A stretch of 64,000 nucleotides of DNA from Adineta ricciae (Eukaryota > Rotifera > Eurotatoria > Adinetida > Adinetidae): the NCBI GenBank assembly GCA_905250025.1, contig CAJNOJ010000298.1, positions 21,647 to 85,646 of the forward strand, in the 5' to 3' direction. Below the pieces are notes generated by a model. That model saw nothing but the letters and a program-made list of their open reading frames with translations. It was not told the origin of the DNA and made no database searches. Both the position numbers and the translations under genes were made by a program. Shown here piece after piece: positions 2,500 to 55,961 of the stretch (position 1 is the first letter of the stretch; each line of letters opens with the position of its first letter).

Positions 2500-4254
2500 T
2501 TAGACTTGAGTTGGCATAATTTTGATTGATGCCAAAACATTTTTCTTCCCTTGTTCAACGGGTTCAACTAAAATAACGTTCGAGTTCGTTGGATCAACTT
2601 TCCATCGAATATATTCGTTTACACTAACATTGTAGCTAGATTTTGGATAGACTAACGATGGAACGAAGATTTCTGTTGCCTGTTTAATTGATGTATCGAT
2701 CGTGTATGTAAGAAGAAAGGTTTTCGTGTTAGGTTCATATTGCATTGTATTTGGTTCACCAGCAATAGCGCGAGCATAAGGTCGAGTTATTCGTTTACTT
2801 GCATCTTGATCATTATAGACAATACCCCAGTATGCCCATGACTGAAAATACTTGTCTGCATATGTCAGAGCCCATTCGAGTTGTTCATCACATGTTGGTG
2901 AACCATCACACCCACCAAACTCAGTTAAAAATGATGAACCACCAAGTTGTTTCACATCAATCTGAAATAAAATCGAAAGCATTATTTTGTCATCGAGTAA
3001 CTTCGAACGAACCATCGTTGAAGCAAACAAAGCTGGTCCTTCGACATCATCACATAGGATTCGATCAAAACTTGGAATCGTTTCATTGCCCGGAACCGGC
3101 TGAATTTGTAAAATTGAACAATAATAATGATAAGAGAACACACTTCGATTTCGATAATTGTTTCCACCGGGAACATGACTGAAACCACTACCAAAATACT
3201 TTCCATTCAATCGAACTATATGAGAAGAACTCGATTCGTATCATGTATTTCTTATTGTTCAACAAACCTCCCCATGTGACAGGCTCATAAAAAATCAATG
3301 TTTCGTTGTCAACAGATCGAATGACTTTCGACAGTTTATCATAAAATGGTTGAAGATTCACCGACCCGGCAATGCCAGGTAGAAGAATGAATGGATTGGC
3401 GAAATAGTTTCCAGCCCATGGTTCATTTATTAACTCGTATCTAAATATGAATGATAGTTTTCAAAAGAGAAGAAAAAAACAATCATCACACCCTAAGACA
3501 TTTGAATATGAGTTGAAAGTTGTTGCGACCAAACGCCAAAAATTCGCCATGGATTCAGTTGCACCAGCAACATTGTCATATAAACATTGAAAACCATGTG
3601 AACATGCTTCTGTCAAATAACTAGAAAAAGCCTCATTAATACATCATTAGACTTCGTTTTGACTTACTTAAGAAACCAACTTGAAATATTTTTGAATGGC
3701 CATGGATCTATAAAGAACAAAGAATGATGTTGACAAAATATTGAGTCGATAAGAAACGCACATGGATGGTCAGGTGGTGGAAATTTATCATAAATATGGG
3801 GAGGGATACCGTCGTACAAGCCTGTTCGACTGCTCAGTCCATCTTGATGCATATCCAGCAAGACATAGATTTGATTTTTCTGAAGTAACTCAACGATTTG
3901 TTTCATCACATTGAGATATGTGTAATTATATTTCTCTGGTGTTGGTTCAACTCCGGTCCACATCATTCTTGAATTGAATTGTTAAATATGAGAGAGAGAG
4001 AAAGATTTATTTGTTTAAACATACCCAAGTCGAACGAAATTCAAACCCCACGACGACATATTTGTAACAAAAGCTGCGTCGAGCAGTTCAGAAGGATACC
4101 ATGGAAATCCTTTGTTAACAAAATTAGCACCATGATAAAGGCGAATTCGATTGTAATTATCTTTGATGTAGATTTCATCGGTATAAACATTAGCTGAACC
4201 CGAACAGAGCTTAACAATGATAAAGAGAATAAAGACTACTATTCTAGATTTCAT
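2500..4254 (-). CDS. GH5 endoglycoceramidase-like secreted glycoside hydrolase, six exons
   Basis: Retaining GH5 hydrolase, most like endoglycoceramidases, which cut the glycan-ceramide bond of glycosphingolipids. Exons (minus strand): 4254-4025, 3967-3762, 3707-3668, 3620-3492, 3440-3268, 3215-2500. All junctions are GT-AG and the phases join to 497 residues. A signal peptide occupies about residues 1-20. Family landmarks in order: F-V-R-L-G-M-M-W spanning exons 1-2, L-L-D-M-H-Q-D-G, the acid/base Glu of I-N-E-P-W (E208) and the nucleophile Glu of L-T-E-F-G-G (E358). A Ser/Thr-rich beta domain follows. Both catalytic Glu are present, so activity is expected, probably extracellular or lysosomal. 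Exon 6 might hide one more short intron in its middle. The next gene upstream is over 1.3 kb away. Confidence 0.85.
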
Positions 4255-10711: not shown

Positions 10712-11626
10712 TTATGTTATAGACATAACTCGTGTTGTTTGCCATTGTAATTTTAACACTCGTGTCATTCTAGTTTTCAATTCTGGCAATGTCAATGCAC
10801 ATACAAACGGATATAACAGAATTACAAAATAAGTAAAGAAATTAATATAAAGATAAAAGGCACCGATGAAATAACTTGATATGCCATAAATATACCGTAT
10901 GATATACACTACTGTAAAGGGCAGTAGAATGATAACATACAAAAAAGCAATTGATAATGCTTGAATGATCATTTTGCGATGTTGCTGCCAATTAAGTGCA
11001 CGACGCATTCGACGCTTTTGCAAGAAAACACGTAGAATCAAACCACTGCTAAATACTGTAATGATAGCAATTGGAACTATTTGATGTGCGATAAAATCCC
11101 ACATGGAAAGTGTATAGTTGTCGTATAAACATGGATAAATACAAATAAGTGACCAAGGACGAAAACGGTTTTCACAAGGTGGAAAGAAATACACAACAAA
11201 ATAAAAGACAAACCAATAGAGAAGAAGTGCTATGAGAGGAACATAATGAACTAAGAACCGCTTTCTCCTTGTTGATATCCATGATTCATGAAATATCAAA
11301 ATATGCCTTTCAATCATTGCCCATGCAAAGACCATTGTATGGACAATATAAAGTGACCAATCAATGAATCCAATGAAGAGACAGAACATGTATGATCGTT
11401 GCCAATCAGTTTCATGTGTAAAATAATAAAGCATCCACGGATAAAACGTTACTTCGTCAATCAAACAAATGACGAGAAGAACGATAATGACATGATTATG
11501 AAGACCACGACGCAGAGCTCGATCGAATAGAAGATGATACAAAACAAAGATTGAACAGATTAATGATGGGACAAGAGCGGCAAGAATAACCCAAAATTTT
11601 ACCATATCCGGTAATACTACTACCAT
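10712..11626 (-). CDS. rhodopsin-like seven-TM receptor
   Basis: Intronless, 304 residues, true ATG at 11626. Seven TM segments are clear. TM1 begins near W-V-I-L-A-A-L-V-P and TM3 carries W-A-M-I-E-R-H-I-L-I-F, an E-R-H variant of the DRY box. The E2 loop has C-I-Y-P-C-L-Y. TM5 is followed by a basic loop (R-R-M-R-R-A), and TM7 ends in I-L-L-Y-P-F-V-C-A-L-T-L-P-E-L. The P-x-x-x-x-L-P-E-L end of TM7 is typical of the bdelloid orphan receptor groups. Ligand and G-protein coupling are unknown. It is not a close copy of the receptor at 8.4-9.4 kb, which has one intron. Confidence 0.8.
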   Translation of the reverse strand: MVVVLPDMVKFWVILAALVPSLICSIFVLYHLLFDRALRRGLHNHVIIVLLVICLIDEVTFYPWMLYYFTHETDWQRSYMFCLFIGFIDWSLYIVHTMVFAWAMIERHILIFHESWISTRRKRFLVHYVPLIALLLYWFVFYFVVYFFPPCENRFRPWSLICIYPCLYDNYTLSMWDFIAHQIVPIAIITVFSSGLILRVFLQKRRMRRALNWQQHRKMIIQALSIAFLYVIILLPFTVVYIIRYIYGISSYFIGAFYLYINFFTYFVILLYPFVCALTLPELKTRMTRVLKLQWQTTRVMSIT

Positions 11627-13990: not shown

Positions 13991-14723
13991 TCAATATAAT
14001 GAAGAATATTTCAAGCATTGTAAATCTTTTTCTATTTGAAATAACATGTAGAAATGAATATGTTAAATGATGCTCTAGTTTACATAAGCGTAAATCATTT
14101 CAAGGTGTATAATTATCCAATTGATTCGCAATTTAATCATAAATACGTTAGTTCTATCTAATATCAAAATAAAGTCAGATAATTCATCGAATCCTCATTT
14201 TTTTTTTGCAAATTATCCATTAGAGATGCTGATGGAAACATCGTAGGTACGATAAGTATCCCCAAAACATTATTTTATAAGAGAGCGTATAATTTCCAGT
14301 ACACATTTTCCTGCGAGAGATTTTGAAGTTGATCGTCTAACAAAAATGAAGGAGAACTTTCTGTAAAATTTTGCATTGGAAAGAAGAAGATTTACAACGA
14401 TCTGTTCTCTTTATCGGATCGTAAAAACACATTAGGTGCTCGATGATGAGATCGGCTTCATAATGCACATTGATATTTATCATCATCAGCGGAAATCAGT
14501 ATTTTGGAGAAACTCGTTAATAACAATAAATTCCACCTTTCCTTCAAATAAACGGAAAGATTCTATGCGTTTGTTCACCCTCTGAGTATACGACAAAACA
14601 GCAAGGAGAAAGATTTTCTTTGTTTGTGTAATTGAAGGAAAAGAAAAGAGAAAAAAAAACCGTTTGATATAACTCGTTGATTTCCATGACAATGTTCTAA
14701 TTTTCTTTCAATATTGTTTTGCA
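13991..14723. other. intergenic, upstream of the TIR gene
   Basis: AT-rich, no coding signal. The 5' region of the plus-strand TIR/SAM gene must lie here. Confidence 0.4.
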
Positions 14724-17224
14724 ATGGGTGGTTGTGCAACCCGTCGTTCAGCAGTTGAAATTTATCCAATTCATCGTCGTATTTCGATTATCTCAAATGA
14801 ATCGAAAAATGAAAAGATGTCAATCGATACAAAAAACATCGTTGAGTTATTTGATCAACTTACTGGAGATATAAAAAACTTTCGTATTCGTTTAAATGAA
14901 AATCATATTCAAATCAATGAATTAATTCATATGGATCTACTAAATCATAAGTTAATATTCTTATTGAAAGAAACTCTTCTGAATATTTTAATAAAATGGA
15001 CATCATTTTCATTAACTGACGATGAAATGAATCTTTTTCGAAATATTTCCATGTTTTTCTTTGAAATCAGTCAATGTTTTAATCGGCACACACCAATGAA
15101 TGTTTATCAAAGTTTTTTATCCACGATGCCATTTATTGATTTGCTCAATGAATGTCTAATCAAAATGTTATTAAATGGCAAGCATTTCGATGATAAACAT
15201 AATTTGAAAAGTTTCACTTATCTTCTGAATACGTTTCGAAATTTTCAAACAAATTCAAGTCATTCAATCGATGAAATTCCTTCATTATTTCCGCTGATTC
15301 TATCAGTTAATAATCTTCTTCGTTCGAATTACTATTTCGAAACATTTCTTCACTTATCATCCGATATATCCGAACTGACCGAATTCGAAGATTTCATTTT
15401 AGACAAATGTTCAATGTTCATCATTTCTTACAAAGGTAAATCTTCGACGGAGGTTCACGACGATCTACTTGAACAAACATTTGATCAATACATTCAAATC
15501 TTCGAACATTTTCTACCTCATATTCAATCCTGGTCAACATCATTCATTCTTATTTTCACACATATGGTCGATATCATGATCAATGCATCAACCACAACAC
15601 AAACTCATATCTTTCAACAACCGAAACTCATTGATTATGCTTTAGTCATCGTTAGCAATGATCAACTTTGTTCAAATTTGGATTCTTTCACTCTTACGCC
15701 GCAGATCTGTTTGATGAATTCGATTCTAACAGGTTTACATAATATGATTTATGAGCCGAAACTTTTAGCAATGTTAAAACGGAAAACCATGACTAAGATT
15801 TTCTTGAAGATCGCAAATACCGCGTCATACGATCGCATACAAATTCATTCATATTTGATTTTAGCCGGAATTTTAAGTGAAGATGAAATACAAAAATTGA
15901 ACAATGCTAAAGAAATTACGAAAATTTTCTACAAATATTTACGTAAAGCGATCAAATCAGAAGAGAAAACGTTCAAAGGTGTGACGGTAATGGCAATACT
16001 TTCAGGATTGAAGACACTTGTTCAACATGAAGAAATTAAAGAAGCAATTCGAAATGAGGATCAAGAGTTGCAATTACTTTCCGAAATGGTTTTTACGAGT
16101 AATGAACAAGAATTAACTGAAGTCTTGAGCATTTTGTGGACATTATCATTTAATGAAAATGTCGCATTGATTATCCGAAAGAATCAGCGATTAATCAATC
16201 AAATTCGAATGTTAGCTACGAGATCAAACAGGTAAGTGATCGAACAAGCTCAAGTTTTCAACCAAGTTCATCTTTTAGTGAATCGATAAAAATGAACAAT
16301 ATCATTTGCAGTGCAGCTGAAGGAATTTTATGGCAAGTTGAAGATGAAGTTACTCTTCTCGAATGTAAAAAAGAAGTTCAAGATGATCAACTTCATCATA
16401 GTTCAATACCCGAATTATCACTAAGAAAGAAAAAATACGATATAATGATTAGTTATTCTCACGATGACAAACAAATTTGTCATAGAATCGCTGATTCTCT
16501 TGTTAATGATGGATTTCTTGTTTGGATTGATAAAAATAACATCACCGGTTCCACAGCCGTTGCAATTGCCGATGGAATTGAAAATAGTGAAATAGTTTTA
16601 ATCGGAATGACTTTTAGTTATAAAATAAGTCCATGGTGTCAAAGAGAAAGTAATTATGCATTTCAAAGACAAGCGAAGATCATTCCATTGAAACTACCGC
16701 CTTCATATACTCCCGATGGATGGCTTGGATTACTCTTAACTAATTTGAAATATATCAACTTTGTTAAATTAGATTTCGATATCGCCTATGAACAATTGAA
16801 ACGAGAAATTGAATCATGTAAACAACAAATAAATGTTTCTCATGTCAATGCACCAAATGTGACAGTTATTCAGGCAATGATCGACTCTAAACAAGGAGAA
16901 TATGTTTATCCACCTGAATCGAATGGTTTGTACAAAGCAATTCCAATGGAAAATTGGACTAGTGAAAATGTGAAGGATTTTCTGAATGATAAAAAGTTGT
17001 ATCCGTTTAATTTACTCTGTAAAGATATGAATGGTTCGGCACTCATCCAATTATACAAATTATCAAATGAAAATTCAACATTAGCTTTTGAATCTTTACA
17101 GAAACAACTATCGAATCAATTTAATCATCATCATTTATCTCCAATTGATTATTCAAGATTTATCGGTGAAATAAAATCATTCAATGCACCGTCAACACAA
17201 TCACATCTTTGTGTAGTTATGTGA
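14724..17224 (+). CDS. helical-repeat/TIR/SAM protein with N-myristoyl and C-prenyl signals
   Basis: Two exons, 14724-16231 and 16312-17224 (80-nt GT-AG intron), join in phase to 806 residues. Residues about 30-500 are all-helical with armadillo/HEAT-like spacing. The TIR domain (about 544-680) starts K-Y-D-I-M-I-S-Y-S and has W-C-Q-R-E-S, whose Glu (E615) matches the catalytic Glu of NAD-cleaving TIR domains such as SARM1. A SAM domain (about 714-790) starts M-E-N-W-T-S-E-N-V. Compared with SARM1 (ARM-SAM-SAM-TIR), the TIR and SAM order is swapped. The N-terminus M-G-G-C is a myristoylation plus palmitoylation type signal, and the C-terminus C-V-V-M is a CaaX box of the farnesyl type. A membrane-tethered NADase-like innate-immune or cell-death adaptor is inferred. 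Confidence 0.85.
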
Positions 17225-17974: not shown

Positions 17975-18872
17975 ATGCTTCCCAACAGAAAAAACCAATC
18001 CAACTGTTTATCTCGATGGTGGAATCAAAACTACCATCATCAAAAACGTCTCGAATCATTTCTTGAACATGCACTTTTTCATCTTTTTATCATCATACTA
18101 GTCGTTGCAGAATGTGCATCTGTTATAACCGAAATTCTTCTTTATAGTGTTAAACGTCAGTATGAATGTCACAATCCTCAGTATTCTTATTCAAGGGCTG
18201 ATATAGAGAAGAAAACGCATCATCTTGACCATGGAATTGAAATATGTCACTATGTGTCATTGAGCATCTTATCGATATTTATGATCGAATTGCTTTCAAA
18301 AATATATGCACTCGGTTTTCATTACTGGAATTGCAAAGAAAATCATAAATTAGATTATTTTGATGCATTTTTGGCAGTTGTTTCATTTTCAACAGAAGTT
18401 TATTTTCTGATTGTTGACAAAGAATCTATTATTGCGCACTCAGCTGCTCTTATTGTGATACTTCGTTTGTGGCATCTTTTAAGAATTGCTAACGGTTTGT
18501 GAATATTTAAGTATTATCTATACTAAGCGAGAAAGATTTTATGTTTCAGCTGTAGCGCGATGTCTTCAGAAAGGTGAAGAATTTAAAACAATTCGTCGAC
18601 AACGTCGTTTGTCAAAAACTTCGGAGACCTTACTCATTCCGTCAAGTATTCAAGCAATACTTGATTTAATGCAAGAAAAAACTGAATGTTTACGACGTGA
18701 TATTAGTGTGGAACAATCGTTAGTAGATCGTTGTGAGTTTATTGATCAAAAATGTCAAGATGCTTTTGACAATTATTATGGTGATGAGACAAAACTTGTT
18801 GAAGAAATTCAAAAGCTCCATCTGATTACTAGACGAACACAATTAAAACAAACAAACGAAACCAACATTTGA
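17975..18872 (+). CDS. HVCN1: Hv1-type voltage-gated proton channel
   Basis: Two exons, 17975-18494 and 18550-18872 (55-nt GT-AG intron), give 280 residues. The four TM segments are an isolated voltage-sensor domain without a pore domain, followed by a C-terminal coiled coil (about 205-270) expected to dimerise the channel. Aligned to human Hv1 from memory: S1 has E46 at the selectivity Asp112 position; S2 has H92, E105 and K109 (human H140, E153, K157); S3 has D130 and E141 (D174, D185). H155 sits near the human H193 position. S4 reads R164-L-W-H167-L-L-R170-I-A-N173. The second S4 gating arginine is therefore His. Role: voltage- and pH-gated H+ efflux at the plasma or phagosome membrane. 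Confidence 0.85.
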
Positions 18873-19453: not shown

Positions 19454-22219
19454 ATGTGTCATGCTTTTTTTCCAATTCCAAGCAGAATCTCAGCTCGAAG
19501 CAAAATAAAAAGAAATAAGCTTTTATCTTTCTCAATTGTGTTTCAAATGTGCTTGGCTGCCGATTTTCTCTCGTGTGCATTCGATTATACTAGTGCAAAG
19601 TTTATCACATACAGTGAAATTCCAGAAAATCAATCGTACTTGAACTGGACAACGCTAATGCGATACCGATCTGATGTTGAAGACAACGAAATTCCAGTAA
19701 TCGAGTCCACTGAACAGCAACTGACCACACTGGATAACGATGATATGAGATTCGTCAATAGAGAAAGTATTGCTTTGATATGGTGTGATGTCCAAGTAGA
19801 CGAACGAAATGAAGCGTTTGTTAATGATGTTCAGCAAACGAAAGCAATTCTTCGTGAACTAAATGATTTCGTTCATTTTTGCTCCAACGAAACTGACTGC
19901 GTCGCTCACGTCAAGACATTTAAGACTGAAACAATCATTTTGATCATATCCGGCTCATATGCATCGGAAAAACTACTCGATGACATGCACACGCTTCGAC
20001 ATGTAGATACTATTTTCATCTTTTATATGGAAAAGAGCAAATACGAAGCGTCGCCCGTATTGCAGAACCCAAAGTATACCAAGATTGGAGGTATCTTCGA
20101 TGAGCAAGAAAGTTTAAAACGAAACATCATCAAAGCAGTGCGAGCAATTGAAAGGCAATCAGCCATTTTTGCACTCTACGATTCAAAGAAACAGAAAACA
20201 GCGCGTAATATCGATCGTGAGAATGGTTCATTTCTATGGCTACAGCTGATCAAGGAAGTGATTCAACAAATGTCTATTACCATTGAGACACCCGGAAGTG
20301 CTAACGTAAGAGATTCTACTAGCAAGCAGGAAATGCTCAACATATGTCGTGCTTATTATCGAGGTAATAAGCGAGAGATGAAAAATATCGATGAATTTGA
20401 GCAAACATACACGGCTAACCAGGCGATTCACTGGTATACGAGAAACAGTTTCATTTTCAAATTAATCAACAAAGCACTCCGCACGGAAGATGTGGAAGCG
20501 CTTTACAATTACCGTTTCTACGTGGTCGATCTATGTGCTTGTTTGGCAGAAAACTGTGACTTGTTACGCGAGTATGCTTGTTCATCACCAAGTGATAAGC
20601 TGAAACTATATTCGGGCCGCAAGCTGTCTCGAGAGGAGATTCAACGCTTGAAGGATAGCGAAGGACAACTGATCTCCATGAACGCGTTTTTTTCTACAAG
20701 CCGTAATAAGAACGTAGCTGAAGTGTTTGCTGGCATCGGCAACGTTAGCGTTGCATTGCAAGAGCTAGAATCAGTCATTTTCGAAATCGAGGTCGACTTA
20801 GTCAGTGACCAACATGTTGTACTAGCAGACATATCTTTCTACAGCGCATTCAAAGACGAAGAAGAAATTTTATTCGATCTGGCAACGGTATTCGAGATTG
20901 AGGCAATGACTTGCATAGATACTGATGTTCCCTCTGACAGAGTATGGACGTGTCGTATGAAAACGTCCAGCAGGAGCAGCGTAGTTGCTCAAGATTATAT
21001 TCAGTTTCAACGGGAACAGATAAAAAAACACAACGATATTGTTATAGTTTTCGGATCTCTCCTGTACGATATGGGTGCATGGAGCAAAGCCAAAGCATAT
21101 TGTCAAAGATTGCTAAGTCAGATGCCGTGTAACGCCCATGTTCTCTTCGAGCTCGGCCGGGCTCACTATGGATTATGCGAATTTGAACAAGCACTTGAAT
21201 GCTTTGCACAAGCCTTCACTCTTTCAATGGCCGATAAACCGCCCAGCTTGGCCCATGCTGCAACGATACAATGCTATATAGGGCATGTCCGACGTCTTCA
21301 ATCTACCTACCATTCAGCGTTGATTAGCTATGAAGATTCTTTGGAGAAATACAAGCAAGCAGGTATGGATAATCAAGTACCTATTGCTAATGTATTAAGC
21401 GGCATTGGATGTGTGCACGATAACCTTGGTGACAGTGCTCTTGCACTGCAATACTTTCGTGAGGCGTTTGAGATTACCATACAATTAACACCTGCCGACC
21501 ATCAAGATGTCATTGTATGTTACGCACGAATCTCGCTTGCTCTATCACATATGGGTGAATATGATGAAGCCCTGCGCTCAGCAGAAATAGCATTAGACAT
21601 CGGTAAACGCATACTACCAAAGAAGAGCGCTACGTTCAGTACTATACTCAACAACATTGGCAAGCTTTTATATAAAAAAGGCGACTACAAACAAGCTCTA
21701 GCACGACATCTCGAAGATCTTGACATAGATCGCGACGTATTGACACACGGAAACATGTACGATTTAGCCATTCGCTATAACAACATTGGCAAAATCTTCT
21801 ATCGAACAGGGAAATATAGCGAGGCTTACGAACAGTATGAAAAAGCATTAATCATCCACCAGAAAACACTTCCAAATGATCACGTCTATATCGCATATAC
21901 GCTGAAAAACATGGGCGAATTATTCTTGGCTCAAGATAAACTTGACCAATCAACCGATTATCTTCATCATGCATTGGAAATGTACGAACGTATCTTTTCT
22001 GATAATCTTCTGCATCCAGAAAAAGCCAAGTGCATATATCTGATTGGTCAACTGTACGAGGCACGTCTTGATCACCAAACGGCCATTTCCTTCTATCGTC
22101 AAGCTCATAGCATATGGAAATCAGTATTGGTGGCTCAACATCCTGACTTGACTTTAAGTCCCAGAAAAATGTCTCAACTTTTCTGGAAACTACTTCGTCG
22201 ATCGATAAGACAGAAATGA
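19454..22219 (+). CDS. ADP-ribosyltransferase fused to kinesin-light-chain-type TPRs
   Basis: Intronless, 921 residues, noticeably less AT-rich than its neighbours. Order: variable N-terminus; conserved alpha/beta region (about 110-270) seen in rotifer TPR-ART proteins; ART fold (about 300-490); then TPRs to the end (about 525-910), with repeating A-x-x-Y-N-N-I-G-K and Y-x-x-A-L units. ART landmarks: L-Y-S387-G-R-K-L-S, F-F-S414-T-S and D-E469-E-E471-I. The canonical Y-R-G arginine position holds Ser387, with an Arg two residues later (R389), so the R-S-E triad is atypical. TPRs should recruit protein partners. The start could be a downstream ATG because the first about 80 residues look unconserved. 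Confidence 0.85.
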   Translation: MCHAFFPIPSRISARSKIKRNKLLSFSIVFQMCLAADFLSCAFDYTSAKFITYSEIPENQSYLNWTTLMRYRSDVEDNEIPVIESTEQQLTTLDNDDMRFVNRESIALIWCDVQVDERNEAFVNDVQQTKAILRELNDFVHFCSNETDCVAHVKTFKTETIILIISGSYASEKLLDDMHTLRHVDTIFIFYMEKSKYEASPVLQNPKYTKIGGIFDEQESLKRNIIKAVRAIERQSAIFALYDSKKQKTARNIDRENGSFLWLQLIKEVIQQMSITIETPGSANVRDSTSKQEMLNICRAYYRGNKREMKNIDEFEQTYTANQAIHWYTRNSFIFKLINKALRTEDVEALYNYRFYVVDLCACLAENCDLLREYACSSPSDKLKLYSGRKLSREEIQRLKDSEGQLISMNAFFSTSRNKNVAEVFAGIGNVSVALQELESVIFEIEVDLVSDQHVVLADISFYSAFKDEEEILFDLATVFEIEAMTCIDTDVPSDRVWTCRMKTSSRSSVVAQDYIQFQREQIKKHNDIVIVFGSLLYDMGAWSKAKAYCQRLLSQMPCNAHVLFELGRAHYGLCEFEQALECFAQAFTLSMADKPPSLAHAATIQCYIGHVRRLQSTYHSALISYEDSLEKYKQAGMDNQVPIANVLSGIGCVHDNLGDSALALQYFREAFEITIQLTPADHQDVIVCYARISLALSHMGEYDEALRSAEIALDIGKRILPKKSATFSTILNNIGKLLYKKGDYKQALARHLEDLDIDRDVLTHGNMYDLAIRYNNIGKIFYRTGKYSEAYEQYEKALIIHQKTLPNDHVYIAYTLKNMGELFLAQDKLDQSTDYLHHALEMYERIFSDNLLHPEKAKCIYLIGQLYEARLDHQTAISFYRQAHSIWKSVLVAQHPDLTLSPRKMSQLFWKLLRRSIRQK

Positions 22220-27202: not shown

Positions 27203-28174
27203 TCAAAGTTTCTTTATGCAAATACCATATGGACGAACATCTTTGTCACTAGGATTTACCCAGTATTCATCGACATTAGTTTGATTATTTGATACTTTTA
27301 ATAATGTCTTAGGATTCACACGGTTTTGTAATATAATTAAATATTGAATATTGCCATGTGAGAATTTGACAGCATACCGTTCGGCTACTTCTAAATCTGG
27401 TGTTGAATATACACCGTATTGAAATGCAAATGTTTTGCCTTTGGTTAATTCAAAGCCGTCTATAGCAATCGTTCGAGCTTGATGAAAGCCAGTTCCATGA
27501 TATGATACAGGCCATTCACCATTTTTATCACTATCACCCAACCAAACCATATTTTCAAATTTGTCAGATACTTTAATCGCGAAGCGTTTCCATCCACAAG
27601 GTCGAACATAAGGCATTGATCCCCTTGTGAATACTCTATTGTTATCTTTTATCCTTGTAAAGTCGTGATCATATTGTGGATCCATGCTGGCAGGGTCCAA
27701 GACTAGTTGAGCTCCATCTCGCGTGCGAGTTAATACATGAAGAGTACATCTATCTTGTATTCCATACTCATGTAATCGTTTTTCATTCGTCAATGTCTTG
27801 CCGGCAAAAACGACGCGTCCTTCATTAGACAGTACCTCATTCGTGTTCTGTAACGCGTTTGTTACATGCTCAACAGTTACATTTGGATCTACATTAACTG
27901 TTATTTCCTTTCCAGACGACATTTTCGCATAGATTTCTATCTGGCGCACCGCAGTATTCAAATCTTTTTTTGTATTTGTTGCCTGATTCGCGGATCCATC
28001 ACCCACTTGACCATACGAATATGTTTTATCGTGATAATCTAATAGTGAAACATTCTCCTGGTCTACTGATGATCTTCGAGTAGATAATCGTAATTGTAGA
28101 GGAACGCCCATAATCGCAGATATACCGGCAACTAATACATCCTGATCGGTCGTGGTACGTTTTGCTGAAGACAT
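27203..28174 (-). CDS. ubiquitin-like domain fused to ART-like domain
   Basis: Intronless, 323 residues, ATG confirmed at 28174. Order: unconserved N-terminus (1-75); ubiquitin-like fold (about 78-150) with I-T-V-N-V-D-P-N-V-T-V, R-V-V-F-A-G-K-T-L-T and L-H-E-Y-G-I-Q-D-R-C-T-L-H-V-L; then a C-terminal domain (about 155-323). The latter has M-P-Y-x-R-P-C-G-W-K-R-F-A, W-P-V-S-Y-H-G-T and Y-G-V-Y-S-T-P-D-L-E-V-A-E-R-Y, ending R-P-Y-G-I-C-I. The YHGT and GVYSTP elements correspond to the His and Tyr strands of diphtheria/PARP-type ART folds. I know this domain pair as a family shared by rotifers and some fungi. It lacks a C-terminal Gly-Gly, so the ubiquitin-like part probably acts as a recognition module. 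Activity is unproven. Confidence 0.75.
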   Translation of the reverse strand: MSSAKRTTTDQDVLVAGISAIMGVPLQLRLSTRRSSVDQENVSLLDYHDKTYSYGQVGDGSANQATNTKKDLNTAVRQIEIYAKMSSGKEITVNVDPNVTVEHVTNALQNTNEVLSNEGRVVFAGKTLTNEKRLHEYGIQDRCTLHVLTRTRDGAQLVLDPASMDPQYDHDFTRIKDNNRVFTRGSMPYVRPCGWKRFAIKVSDKFENMVWLGDSDKNGEWPVSYHGTGFHQARTIAIDGFELTKGKTFAFQYGVYSTPDLEVAERYAVKFSHGNIQYLIILQNRVNPKTLLKVSNNQTNVDEYWVNPSDKDVRPYGICIKKL

Positions 28175-33307: not shown

Positions 33308-35143
33308 ATGAATTTAATTGCTATTGGTCGACGGTTTTGTGGATTTATGATAATCATAGCGTTGAATTTTATTCTGATCGTCTACTTGACGCTCATTGTC
33401 ACACATTCCCATGTGAATATCATCTCGTATTTTAACAATTTCCAATTGGAAACATCACACGGGGAATTACTAAATACATCTTTTCGGCAGATAGGCAATG
33501 TTATTTGGACTCATGATGGTTCCGGCTTGATGAAATATATTCAATGGATTGTTAGTCGAAAATTAAGTAATGTGAAAATTCTTCGTCTGAATATCAATTG
33601 TTACATCACTAATCAATCGTATTTCTCATTGGCTTCAACGAGTGAAAAACTTCTTCAGATACACATTGTTTCACTTACAACTGATTCGAAATGTTCAGCA
33701 GAAATTAGCCATATGATAGATGTTCATCACAGTATTTATTTTATAAGAAAATCTATTTTAGCAATGCTTTTATATCAAGATTTAGACTCGACGGGAAATT
33801 CGAATGTTTTAAATTTACATGAACGAATTGAACAAGCGAGAAAAGTCATAAAAACTATTTCGAATCACACAGAATTGAAAGTGATTTATGCAGAAGACTT
33901 GATTCATGTGAATTTGACTAACTGCGAGAGTCTACTGAAGACTTTTCTCTCAATATTAGGCTATCAAACGTCCACAAATCAGTTGAAATCTATCATAGAA
34001 TATGATTCTCATCAGTTTATCCAAGATGCAACATGGTGGGATCAATCTGAAGTTGCTGAACGTCTTCTTACTAATTCAATTCCGTCTCGCTCATCAAATC
34101 TCACATATTCAACCGATTTTTATCATCTACACGGTAATCGTACATTTGCCGAATATTTATTAGATAATCGCAAATGCTACAACGATGGTACATTTGCTCA
34201 AATGCAATCAGAAACAATGAACAATCGGTCTTCGGTCGACAAACCTGACCGTTGTTTATCAAAGTCATTTGATTGTAAATTTAGTGATATTTATTCATTT
34301 GATGACAGAGAACAACTGTACAAACGTAATAATCGAAACCCAGTCAAATGTGGTTTTGCGATTCCATCAATATTTGATACAATTAGAAAGCGGTATGGTC
34401 GGAATGAAAAGTGTCATGTAATTATTTTCACAGTTATCACTAACTGCTATGATCATTTACCGGAAATACACGGAAGGATCTTAGCTTCATTTTGTTGTGT
34501 CGCTCTGCTAGATGCACAGACTATTCGGGTACACAGAAATCTTACTCGGACTAAATCTGCTTATATTTGGAATATAATCGATTTAGGGAATGAAGCAACA
34601 CCCTTCGTTGTGTCTGCGAAGTCAACAGAAACGTTGAAAACTCTTGGACAACGAATGTTTCCATTAGCAAAATGGATTATCTGGTTGGACGGGAAAGCAC
34701 ATATTAAAAATATTCAGGAATTATTAACACAAGCACGATCTCCGATGATTGGCGCTCGTCATCCTGATGAAAGACGTACGTCGGCCTCTGAAGTCGAGCC
34801 GACCATAATTCATTTACGTGGAAGAGAAAAATTGTTATCAAATCGTCTTAACGAGACTTTGTTTGACATAAAACTTCAAGAAAACGAGTATCAACGTGAA
34901 GGGTTTTATTCTCGCTTGGATCTTCTCAAATTGAAAATGTTTGACATCGCGGTATTTTTACATCGAAATAATCATCCATGTACTTTTCGACAGCTGTGTG
35001 AATGGCATAATGAGGTGAATTATTTTTCATTTCGAGGACAATTATCCACCTTTTATCCAGCTGTTCGACTACATCTAACGCAATATTTACAGTTTTTACC
35101 AGAAGAGTTCTATTCAACTTTTGGGCATCGATCTGTTTGCTGA
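33308..35143 (+). CDS. type II membrane protein with DUF616 (TOD1/MUCI70) glycosyltransferase-like domain
   Basis: Intronless, 611 residues. A short basic N-terminus is followed by a signal anchor (about residues 12-33), giving a Golgi-type type II topology. Residues 35-280 form a poorly conserved lumenal stem. The C-terminal half carries DUF616 landmarks: V-K-C-G-F-A, I-I-F-T-V-I-T-N-C-Y-D-H-L-P-E, C-C-V-A-L-L-D, L-G-Q-R-M-F-P-L-A-K-W-I-I-W-L-D-G-K, and a His/Glu-rich C-terminal helix region with L-C-E-W-H-N-E-V. The domain is best known from plant TOD1/MUCI70 and bacteria. A Golgi glycan-modifying role is inferred. Several N-x-S/T sites fit a lumenal position. Intronless, unlike most neighbours. 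Confidence 0.7.
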   Translation: MNLIAIGRRFCGFMIIIALNFILIVYLTLIVTHSHVNIISYFNNFQLETSHGELLNTSFRQIGNVIWTHDGSGLMKYIQWIVSRKLSNVKILRLNINCYITNQSYFSLASTSEKLLQIHIVSLTTDSKCSAEISHMIDVHHSIYFIRKSILAMLLYQDLDSTGNSNVLNLHERIEQARKVIKTISNHTELKVIYAEDLIHVNLTNCESLLKTFLSILGYQTSTNQLKSIIEYDSHQFIQDATWWDQSEVAERLLTNSIPSRSSNLTYSTDFYHLHGNRTFAEYLLDNRKCYNDGTFAQMQSETMNNRSSVDKPDRCLSKSFDCKFSDIYSFDDREQLYKRNNRNPVKCGFAIPSIFDTIRKRYGRNEKCHVIIFTVITNCYDHLPEIHGRILASFCCVALLDAQTIRVHRNLTRTKSAYIWNIIDLGNEATPFVVSAKSTETLKTLGQRMFPLAKWIIWLDGKAHIKNIQELLTQARSPMIGARHPDERRTSASEVEPTIIHLRGREKLLSNRLNETLFDIKLQENEYQREGFYSRLDLLKLKMFDIAVFLHRNNHPCTFRQLCEWHNEVNYFSFRGQLSTFYPAVRLHLTQYLQFLPEEFYSTFGHRSVC

Positions 35144-52940: not shown

Positions 52941-55900
52941 TCAGTTTAAACTAAGAGTAGACGACGATGAAGTTGAATTACAAAGTTCATTGAACAACAA
53001 ATTCAATTGTTGTCTTGCTTCGTGCGCTTTTTTGAAATATTCTTGTGCTTTTGAGTTGTCACCCATTCTTTCGTACGTTAAACCAATATGATCACATGTC
53101 TCGGCTATATCAAGATAATTCGGTGGTTGATATTTTTCTCGGATTTCAAGTGCTTTTTGGTAGTTTTCCAGAGCTTTTGAATGTTCATCCATATTTAAAT
53201 ACACTCCACCGATGTTGTTATAAACTTTGGCGAGATTTGGGTCTGTAGATGGTGAATTTTTACGTAGAATTTCCAGTGCCTTATACAAGTACTGAAGAGC
53301 GCTAGGATAGTCGCTTTTATGAGAATATATAGGACCAATGTTGTTGTATCTCATAGCTTGACTGAGATAAGTAGATGGCAAAGACTTAGGAAAACTTTCG
53401 AGAACTTTATCGTAATTTTCAAGAGCTTTTGACTGATTATCCATATGAGAATACACTAAACCGATGTTGTTTCGAGTGTTGGCTAAATTGAGATGAGTCA
53501 AGTGGGAGTTTTTCTCGAGAATTTCATAGGCCTTGTTATAGTTTTCGAGAGCTTTTGACTCATCACCCATACGAGAATACACTGAACCTATATTGTTGTA
53601 ACTTTTTGCTAAATCTGGATGTGTCGACGGCAGAACTCTGCGTCGAATTTCGAGAGTCTTGTTGTAATTTTCGAGAGCAATTGTGTATTTTCCCATAGAA
53701 GAATATATCCAACCTATATTGTTGTAGCTCATGGCTATATCTGCATGGATTCGTGGCAATACTTTCTCTTGAATTTCAAGGGCTTTCTTCTGATTTTGAA
53801 GGGCTTTTGAATAATCACCAACACGAAAATGCACTAGAGCTAAATTGTTGTAGCTTGTGGCTAAGCTCCGATGGCTTGATGGTAAGATTTTCCGTTTGAT
53901 TTCAAGTGCTTTCTTTTGACTTTCCAAAGCTCTTAAATAATCACCCATTTCAGCATACACTAAACCTATATTGCTGTAGCTTGCAGCCAAATCTCCATGG
54001 ATTGATGGCAATACTTTCTCTTGAATTGCAAGTGCCTTCTTGTAATATTCCAGAGCCCTTGATTGTTGGCCAATACCAGAGTACAGCGAACCAATATTAT
54101 TATAGGTTGTGGCCAAACTTGGATCAGTCAGCGACAGTACTTTCTGTTGAATCCCAAGTGCCTTGTTGTAGTTTTCAAGTGCTGTTAAATAATCACCCAT
54201 ATCAGAATACACTGAACCTATATTGTTATAGGTTGTGGCCAAATCTGGATGAGAGAGAGACAATACTTTCTGTTGAATTTCGAGTGCCTTGTTGTAATTT
54301 TCGAGAGCTCTTGAATAATCACCCATCCGGGAATACACTAAACCTATGTTATTGTAGGTTGTTGCGAAATTTGGATGAGCAGATTGCAAAATCTTTCGAT
54401 AAATTTCAAGTGCCTTATTGTAATATATGAAAATTTTTGAATGATCACCCATGCGAGAATATATTGAACCTAGCTCCATGTAGCTTGTGGCTAAATCTGC
54501 ATGGATTGGTGGCAGTACTCTCTCTTGAATATCAAGTGCCTTCTTCTGATTCTCCAGAGCTCTTGAATGATTACCCATACGAGAATAGGTTAAAGCTATG
54601 TTGCTATAGCTGCGGGCTAAATCGGTATGAGTCGGCGGTAATATTTCCTCTTGAATCTGAAGTGCTTTGTTTTGATTTTCCAGAGCTTTTGGATGATCGC
54701 CCATACGAGAATATATCGAACCTATATTCGTGTAACTTATGGCTAAATCCGGATGAACCGATGATAACACTTTCTGTCGAATTGCAAGTGCTTTTCTTTG
54801 ATTTTCCAGAGCTTTTGAATCATCACCAATATAAGAATACAATAAACCCATATTACCATAGGTTCTAGCTAAATCTGCAGATCTGGATGGCAGAATTTTG
54901 AGTTGAATTTTGATAGCCTTTTTGTAGTATTCGAGAGCTTTTGTGGATTCCCCCATATCAGTATATACCGAACCAATATTGTTGTAGCTCATGGCTAAAT
55001 CGGGATGTGTCGGTGGTAATACTCTCTGTCGAATTTTAATTGCTTTCTTTTGATTTTCCAGAGCTTTTAAATGATCACTCATGCTCGAATACACACCAGC
55101 GATGTTGTTGTAAGCCGATGCTAAATAAGGATGAGTCGGTGGCAAAGTTTTTCTATATATTCTCAGTGCCATTTTGTAGACTTCAAGAGCTCTAGAATAA
55201 TTGCCCATATGATCATAAACACCAGCGATGTTGTTGAAAATGCTGACTGAATCTGGATGATCAGGAGACAAAGATTGTTGTTGAATCGCTACTGCTTTAT
55301 TGCAGTTTTCAACAGCTTTCGAGTATTCGCCCATACGCAAGTACTCTAAGCCTATGCTGCTGTAAGTCTTGGCGGTATTGGAATGAGTGGGTGACAACGA
55401 TTTGGTATAAATCTCGAGTGTTTTATAGTAGTTCTCGAGAGCTCTTGAATGCTCACCCATACTGGAATACACGGAACCTATGTTGTTATAAGTGGGGGCT
55501 AAACATAGATCATTCGACGATGCAGACCTCTGACAAATTTCCAAAGCTTTGTTGTAGTTTTCAAGAGCTCTGAATTGTTCTCCCATATGTGAATACGCTA
55601 CACCTATATTATTATAACTTCTGGCCAAATCTGATTCGATCGACGACTTGAGCAAAATGTCAAGAGCCTTATTGTGGTTTTCAAGAGCTCTTGAATATTC
55701 GCCAGTATCAATGTATACTGAACCTATGTTGTTGTAAGTTGTAGCGAAGTCTGAATGAGCGGATGGTAAAGCTTTCTGCTGTATTTCAAACGCTTTATTG
55801 TAATTTTCAAGAGCAGTCGCGTATTCACCCATGCCAGAATATGCTGAGCCAATATCGTTATATGTCTTAGCTAAATCTGGATGAGGTTGGGAAAAGACTT

Positions 55901-55961
55901 CTGTTTGAATATTAATCGCTTTTTCATAGTTTTGAACAGCTTTGGAATATTGTGCAACCAT
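52941..55961 (-). CDS. giant kinesin-light-chain-type TPR protein
   Basis: 1006 residues, no introns within the array, ATG at 55961. Almost the whole protein is about 22-23 tandem 42-residue TPRs. The consensus is Y-N-N-I-G-x-V-Y-S-x-M-G-x-Y-S-x-A-L-E-N-Y-x-K-A-L-E-I-Q, then K-x-L-P-x-x-H-P-D-L-A. TPR solenoids are protein-binding scaffolds; here no catalytic domain is attached. The frame is open upstream of the ATG and reads A-T-Q-F-I-N-I-G-R-N-H-H after a possible acceptor (near 55998), so a 5' exon may exist. The C-terminus ends in a short Ser-rich tail. The similarity of the repeats implies recent repeat expansion. Cytoplasmic; partner unknown. Confidence 0.85.
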   Translation of the reverse strand: MVAQYSKAVQNYEKAINIQTEVFSQPHPDLAKTYNDIGSAYSGMGEYATALENYNKAFEIQQKALPSAHSDFATTYNNIGSVYIDTGEYSRALENHNKALDILLKSSIESDLARSYNNIGVAYSHMGEQFRALENYNKALEICQRSASSNDLCLAPTYNNIGSVYSSMGEHSRALENYYKTLEIYTKSLSPTHSNTAKTYSSIGLEYLRMGEYSKAVENCNKAVAIQQQSLSPDHPDSVSIFNNIAGVYDHMGNYSRALEVYKMALRIYRKTLPPTHPYLASAYNNIAGVYSSMSDHLKALENQKKAIKIRQRVLPPTHPDLAMSYNNIGSVYTDMGESTKALEYYKKAIKIQLKILPSRSADLARTYGNMGLLYSYIGDDSKALENQRKALAIRQKVLSSVHPDLAISYTNIGSIYSRMGDHPKALENQNKALQIQEEILPPTHTDLARSYSNIALTYSRMGNHSRALENQKKALDIQERVLPPIHADLATSYMELGSIYSRMGDHSKIFIYYNKALEIYRKILQSAHPNFATTYNNIGLVYSRMGDYSRALENYNKALEIQQKVLSLSHPDLATTYNNIGSVYSDMGDYLTALENYNKALGIQQKVLSLTDPSLATTYNNIGSLYSGIGQQSRALEYYKKALAIQEKVLPSIHGDLAASYSNIGLVYAEMGDYLRALESQKKALEIKRKILPSSHRSLATSYNNLALVHFRVGDYSKALQNQKKALEIQEKVLPRIHADIAMSYNNIGWIYSSMGKYTIALENYNKTLEIRRRVLPSTHPDLAKSYNNIGSVYSRMGDESKALENYNKAYEILEKNSHLTHLNLANTRNNIGLVYSHMDNQSKALENYDKVLESFPKSLPSTYLSQAMRYNNIGPIYSHKSDYPSALQYLYKALEILRKNSPSTDPNLAKVYNNIGGVYLNMDEHSKALENYQKALEIREKYQPPNYLDIAETCDHIGLTYERMGDNSKAQEYFKKAHEARQQLNLLFNELCNSTSSSSTLSLN

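What the first reader, a model, noticed from the sequence alone, without database searches (positions are those of the whole stretch)
14724..17224. TIR/SAM protein with lipid-anchor signals at both ends
The protein starts M-G-G-C (N-myristoylation and palmitoylation type) and ends C-V-V-M (CaaX, farnesyl type), with helical repeats, a TIR domain keeping the NADase Glu (E615), and a SAM domain after it. SARM1 has SAM domains before TIR. Double-ended membrane tethering of a TIR NADase would be a new layout that could control oligomerisation by bringing both termini to the membrane.
Basis: partly seen in the sequence, partly recalled or inferred. Interest (0 to 1): 0.8.

Follow-up and report, generated by a model that had tools for sequence, protein, structure and literature searches.

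The report
Lipid-anchored TIR-SAM family, probably rotifer
This gene encodes a TIR enzyme-like protein with a lipid-anchor signal at each end; the tail signal recurs in about half of the related genes examined in the same animal genome, while the front signal is shared only with its two closest relatives, which lack the tail signal.

Summary
A two-exon gene (14724-17224; 47-nt intron preferred, 817 aa) starts MGGCATRR and ends CVVM. It has a helical N-terminal half, a TIR domain with the NADase-position Glu, and a SAM-like domain after the TIR. I compared it with paralogues in its own 130-Mb genome (probably a bdelloid rotifer; not confirmed). The C-terminal CaaX is a family trait: 21 of 45 distinct genes with a readable end carry it, against 6 of 426 opposite-strand control ORFs. 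The Glu is kept in 56 of 56 aligned TIR rows. The N-terminal MG..GC motif occurs otherwise only in the closest relatives, a near-identical pair: 2 of 29 paralogue rows with an ATG start MG, both of that pair. That pair lacks CaaX, and no alternative last exon supplying one was found. Of the genes seen, only this one has both signals, so double tethering is not a conserved layout; a lipid-anchor signal at one end or the other is. Best reading: a membrane-tethered, SARM1-like (but not SARM1) TIR NADase family, this member carrying both anchors. Lipidation, NAD cleavage and transcripts were not testable here.

The parts
14724..16231 (+). Exon 1: N-terminal half, all-helical by prediction, no Pfam family
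   Evidence: low-confidence fold, mean pLDDT 50.7, Foldseek hits mainly armadillo-type and other repeat proteins with TM-scores of 0.15-0.37
14724..14747 (+). N-terminal MGGCATRR: myristoylation/palmitoylation-type motif
   Evidence: sequence; aligned with MGFGCSK of L009; in-frame stop at 14670
16232..16278 (+). Intron, GTAAGT...TTTTAG, 47 nt (alternative acceptor ends at 16311, 80 nt)
   Evidence: linker length of intron-free L009/L010
16279..17224 (+). Exon 2 with stop codon: TIR, SAM-like domain, CaaX
16442..16798 (+). TIR domain (Pfam TIR_2)
   Evidence: E 7.4e-20, residues 51-169 of the exon-2 ORF
16646..16648 (+). Codon of the NADase-position Glu (E626 in the 817-aa model, E615 in the 806-aa model)
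   Evidence: Glu in 56 of 56 aligned TIR rows
16940..17185 (+). SAM-like domain after the TIR
   Evidence: not found by Pfam here; family alignment and profile match to solved SAM domains
17210..17221 (+). CaaX box CVVM at the extreme C-terminus
   Evidence: CaaX in 21 of 45 family genes

Best explanation
The gene belongs to a large animal family of helical (ARM-like)-TIR-SAM proteins that work like SARM1 but are held on membranes by lipids. Shown from sequence: the NADase-position Glu in every TIR row aligned; a SAM-like domain after the TIR; a recurrent C-terminal CaaX in about half of the genes examined; an N-terminal MG..GC motif in this gene and its nearest pair. Inferred: CaaX is farnesylated (X = M or S) or geranylgeranylated (X = L or I); MG..GC is myristoylated and palmitoylated; the helical half restrains the TIR until a signal comes; the SAM domains assemble complexes on the membrane; the TIRs pair and cleave NAD+ in an innate-immune or cell-death response. 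Probable history: CaaX is old in the window's clade, the window lineage gained an N-terminal anchor, the sister pair then lost CaaX, and the window gene keeps both. Its tail has no second Cys or basic patch beside the box, so N-terminal acyl groups could serve as the second membrane signal that Ras-type anchors need (Ras rule recalled).
For: CaaX in 21 of 45 distinct genes; Cys at -4 in 21 genes and in 0 to 4 at each other position from -1 to -18; X = M 10, L 6, S 4, I 1. Controls: 6 of 426 opposite-strand ORFs of 60 aa or more, 3 of 92 of 100 aa or more, 1 of 21 of 150 aa or more; 1 of 253 window ORFs, the gene itself. Glu in 56 of 56 TIR rows; in the two printed profile alignments Cat1, a CRISPR-associated TIR, has Glu at that column and the adaptor MyD88 has Gln. 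Window + L009/L010 clade 100/100; 9 of 13 rows of the surrounding clade have CaaX. MG-GCAT aligns with MGFGCSK. The pair is under purifying selection (pN 0.022/pS 0.093 in exon 1, 0.038/0.147 in exon 2). SAM profile.
Against: 24 of 45 genes lack CaaX, the nearest pair among them. MG..GC is in one clade only, and the pair's Phe3 is disfavoured by the recalled myristoylation pattern. Four of the 21 boxes have a charged residue after the Cys (CELM, CRLM, CRMM, CDIM). ARM likeness rests on a poor model, and sequence and profile searches gave no significant match for the N-terminal half. The TIR profile also matches non-enzymatic TIRs such as MyD88 and TLRs. No lipidation, activity, expression or localisation data.
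Confidence: 0.6

Rival explanations
1. Only the C-terminal anchor is used in the window protein. CaaX is inherited and functional, while MGGC is not lipidated or the protein starts at a later Met, so there is no double-ended tether.
For: Among 29 paralogue rows with an ATG, 27 do not start MG; the N-terminal motif differs by an indel from that of the pair; one gene is the only case of both ends.
Against: Gly2, Gly-Cys and a following I.R.SI.SN pattern are kept in L009 over about 53% identity; L009 and L010 differ at 6 amino acids in the 63-codon stretch compared, none within MGFGCSKI; the window start has an in-frame stop 54 nt upstream.
Confidence: 0.25
2. The proteins are membrane-bound TIR scaffolds (adaptors) rather than NADases; the Glu is kept for structure.
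For: The TIR profile matches MyD88 and Toll-like receptors better (2.9e-9 and 2.2e-8) than C. elegans tir-1 (9.3e-6) or AbTIR (7.3e-5); lipid-anchored TIR adaptors exist (TRAM; passages of PMC10014160).
Against: The best solved relative is Cat1 (9.2e-15), with the Glu aligned, and MyD88 has Gln there; Glu is invariant in 56 of 56 rows of a very divergent family.
Confidence: 0.2
3. The end motifs are chance short matches.
For: Such motifs arise by chance: 6 of 426 control ORFs end in CaaX, 3 of 92 among those of 100 aa or more.
Against: 21 of 45 family genes against about 0.6 expected (about 1.5 with the 3-of-92 rate). The genes are related, so the nominal binomial P of 4e-27 overstates it, yet the linkers before the box differ in length and sequence while the box stays, and well-supported branches force at least 6 changes of the label on the tree.
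Confidence: 0.03

Closest known systems
SARM1 / C. elegans TIR-1 (ARM-SAM-SAM-TIR NADase)
   Same: TIR with Glu at the NADase position; SAM-type domain; helical N-terminal half; Drosophila SARM1 ARM appears at rank 42 of a weak Foldseek list; tir-1 is matched by the TIR profile at 9.3e-6
   Different: SAM-like domain after, not before, the TIR (SARM1 order recalled); a SARM1 SAM is matched only at E 0.24; CaaX and MG..GC ends
ARM-TIR proteins of the oyster (class named in a figure legend of PMC4346834; passages seen)
   Same: Invertebrate ARM + TIR class within expanded immune gene sets
   Different: No SAM or lipid anchor mentioned in the passages seen; sequences not compared
TRAM/TICAM2 (myristoylated TIR adaptor; passages of PMC10014160)
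   Same: TIR protein with N-terminal myristoylation
   Different: Adaptor without the helical half, SAM or CaaX (architecture partly recalled)
Cat1 (CRISPR-associated TIR)
   Same: Best solved relative of the TIR profile, E 9.2e-15, Glu aligned
   Different: Bacterial (recalled), other partner domains, not known to be lipid-anchored (recalled)

Membership tests
TIR NADases | TIR domain | tested here: met
   TIR_2 E 7.4e-20
TIR NADases | Catalytic-position Glu | tested here: met
   56 of 56 rows; aligned with Glu of Cat1
TIR NADases | NAD+ cleavage | not testable with these tools
   no activity data
SARM1 | SAM domains before the TIR | tested here: not met
   the SAM-like domain lies at 16940-17185, after the TIR; Pfam finds no SAM in exon 1
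SARM1 | ARM repeats at the N-terminus | tested here: inconclusive
   all-helical low-confidence model, armadillo-type hits with low TM-scores; no significant sequence match
SARM1 | Allosteric NMN/NAD+ site in the ARM domain (recalled) | not tested
   no reliable model of the N-terminal half
SAM domains | Sequence match to SAM families | tested here: inconclusive
   Pfam: 4 of 10 family sequences show sub-threshold SAM_PNT or SAM_2, the window's does not. Profile of 18: ETV6 fusions 1.8e-4, SMS1 0.0015, liprin-beta 0.0022, neurabin 0.0028, Shank2 0.0082, mostly over the first half of the domain
CaaX (prenylated) proteins | C-a-a-X at the extreme C-terminus, kept in the family | tested here: met
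   CVVM; 21 of 45 genes
CaaX (prenylated) proteins | Actual prenylation | not testable with these tools
   needs labelling or mass spectrometry
N-myristoylated proteins | Met-Gly start with a small residue at position 6 (recalled pattern) | tested here: met
   MGGCATRR fits; 1 of 99 window ORFs. L009/L010 (MGFGCSK) break the pattern at Phe3
N-myristoylated proteins | Actual myristoylation | not testable with these tools
   needs labelling

The most novel reading that the evidence does not exclude
An animal lineage has built a large family of prenylated, membrane-bound TIR-SAM NADases in which the lipid anchor has moved from one protein end to the other. The window protein is the stage with both ends lipidated, so that both termini of a SAM-assembled TIR complex are pinned to one membrane and its activation geometry is set by the membrane.
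Probability: 0.4. Interest if true: 0.75.

Novelty: new variant of a known kind. Interest (0 to 1): 0.6.

Why it matters
SARM1-type TIR enzymes are controlled by autoinhibition and oligomerisation (recalled). A family with a selected lipid-anchor signal would add membrane tethering as a control layer, with natural variants (anchor signal at the C end, the N end, both, neither) in one genome to test it. The listings of ten literature searches (open-access papers only, capped lists, mostly titles and abstract starts) showed me no report of CaaX-bearing TIR proteins or of this family in rotifers.

Tried and rejected
Structure: exon 2 as a single sequence failed (mean pLDDT 32.6) and was not used; exon 1 reached 50.7, so its Foldseek list (6 matches at E 0.001 or better, TM-scores low) is only a hint. 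PDB search with exon 1 found nothing up to E 5; a profile of 13 N-terminal regions found 2 matches, E 0.41 and 0.64, neither meaningful. A hidden last exon that would give CaaX to L009/L010 was sought (donors from 60 nt before to 3 nt after the stop's start, acceptors up to about 450 nt on) and not found. The 80-nt intron and E615 were set aside for the 47-nt intron and E626. 'Bdelloid rotifer' stays an inference from recalled likeness (genome size, short introns, near-identical gene pairs with more distant copies). Searches of the genome for a recalled rotifer spliced leader and for the Pfam families PF01233 (NMT), PF01239 (prenyltransferase alpha) and PF00536 (SAM_1) did not complete. Whether the genome has a canonical SARM1 was not tested. 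Literature hits on dual lipidation were seen as a listing only.

Full report
What is there. The window is part of contig C298 of a 130-Mb assembly, clearly eukaryotic by its introns and gene content, probably a bdelloid rotifer (inference from recall, not confirmed). The gene has two exons joined by a GTAAGT...AG intron. The protein starts MGGCATRR, with an in-frame stop 54 nt upstream, and ends CVVM. Pfam finds TIR_2 at 7.4e-20 in exon 2 and nothing in exon 1.

Relatives. A genome search with exon 2 gave 128 matching places, a lower bound with several per gene; exon 1 gave 33. The nearest relatives are a near-identical pair, L009 and L010: 61% identical to the window in TIR-SAM, L009 53% in exon 1. 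With the window gene they form a 100/100 clade in a 56-row TIR tree.

C-terminus. Of 45 distinct genes whose end I could read, 21 end in CaaX (pattern C-x-[ILVMF]-[ACFILMNQSTV]). Ends come; for L014, L033 and L045 the last exon lies beyond the first stop. Left out before the count: near-identical partners or the same gene seen twice (L010, L017, L022, L027b, L028, L032, L033b, L034, L044, L046, L049, L053, L058, L060), a partial copy whose tail runs on (L020), and loci without a complete end (L035, L061, L062); the pairing was by eye. Cys stands at -4 in 21 genes and in 0 to 4 genes at each other position from -1 to -18; no Cys at -4 falls outside a box; X is M 10, L 6, S 4, I 1. Controls: opposite-strand ORFs in the same loci give 6 of 426 (60 aa or more), 3 of 92 (100 or more) and 1 of 21 (150 or more), so about 0.6 (or 1.5 with the second rate) would be expected among 45. 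The nominal P of 4e-27 treats paralogues as independent, which they are not. On the tree the label needs 10 changes, at least 6 forced by well-supported branches, against a mean of 18.4 for shuffled labels: it is clustered, but has been gained or lost repeatedly. Three genes have CC before the aaX (L018b, L023b, L041), a Ras-like second signal (recalled). In L025 the box follows the TIR with no SAM-like domain seen between them.

Against this, 24 of 45 genes lack CaaX, the nearest pair among them (ends LTLFV and LTILV); no donor near their stop and acceptor downstream gives a CaaX end. In the 13-row clade around the window gene 9 rows have CaaX and 4, two near-identical pairs, do not, so loss in the pair is the simpler reading; gain in the window gene is not excluded.

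N-terminus. Of 36 paralogue rows examined, 29 have an ATG in the exon before the first matched residue, and 2 start MG: L009 and L010. The first ATG need not be the true start in all (L026 and L028, near-identical, give different ones). Of 12 CaaX-bearing rows among the 29 none starts MG. MAFFT aligns MG-GCAT with MGFGCSK, followed by a shared I.R.SI.SN pattern. The pair's Phe3 is disfavoured by the recalled PROSITE-type pattern. Over 63 codons around the start L009 and L010 differ at 9 codons, 6 of them amino-acid changes, none within MGFGCSKI. Overall the pair is under purifying selection (pN 0.022, pS 0.093 over 430 codons of exon 1; pN 0.038, pS 0.147 over 300 codons of exon 2).

Domains. 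The NADase-position Glu is in 56 of 56 TIR rows. A profile of 18 TIRs matches 40 distinct PDB sequences at E 0.001 or better: Cat1 first (9.2e-15), then MyD88 (2.9e-9), Toll-like receptors, RPS4, C. elegans tir-1 (9.3e-6) and AbTIR (7.3e-5) among others; of the two printed alignments Cat1 has Glu at the column and MyD88 Gln. The domain after the TIR has invariant W and G in 18 sequences. Its profile finds SAM domains of ETV6 (1.8e-4 in fusions with several copies), SMS1 (0.0015), liprin-beta, neurabin and Shank2 (0.0082), mostly over the first half of the domain; a SARM1 SAM is at 0.24, not significant. Exon 1 is predicted all helical at low confidence, with armadillo-type and other repeat proteins heading a Foldseek list with low TM-scores.

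Reading. Both signals together are seen in one gene. A TIR atlas (outline, abstract, section 5 and passages of PMC13142454) reports uncharacterised eukaryotic TIR clades, some common in animals, and its main text holds no 'rotifer', 'CaaX' or 'myristoyl'; whether this family falls in one of those clades was not tested. Rotifer lamins lack CaaX (passages of PMC10125929), so, if the host is a rotifer, CaaX is not kept there out of habit in every old substrate.

Noticed in passing
19454-22219 (+); L009, L010, L033: An ART-TPR gene (NAD:arginine ADP-ribosyltransferase domain, PF01129 E 4.6e-7, plus TPR repeats) lies about 2.2 kb downstream of the TIR gene; ART-TPR-like relatives also lie beside the TIR genes of L009/L010 and L033. 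Two kinds of NAD-consuming gene may be recurrent neighbours; both may simply be large families.
   Followed up: partly
14724-17224; L009, L010: The pair's matches split near residue 432, as in several other paralogues, which suggests a shared intron that the window gene lacks; the window gene has a short intron at about residue 503 that the pair lacks.
   Followed up: partly
17975-18502 (+): ORF with an Ion_trans match (E 3.1e-7), resembling a voltage-sensor-only protein such as a proton channel (recalled likeness).
   Followed up: no
L020 (C79:265700-271700): Partial third copy close to the L010 gene on the same contig, with a shortened TIR and a tail that runs past the position of the L010 stop.
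   Followed up: no
52941-55961 (-): A 1006-aa ORF made largely of TPR repeats (TPR_12 in 14 and TPR_10 in 18 stretches).
   Followed up: no
10712-11626 (-); L038, L046: ORF with a sub-threshold 7tm_1 match (E 3.6e-6, 27.1 bits against a cut-off of 30.5); similar coding sequence lies in L038 and L046, which hold another pair of TIR-SAM genes.
   Followed up: no
2500-3210 (-); 27203-28174 (-); 33308-35143 (+): Other Pfam matches in the window: Glyco_hydro_5_C (2.8e-17), ubiquitin (2.1e-13), TOD1_MUCI70 glycosyltransferase-like (6.6e-19).
   Followed up: no
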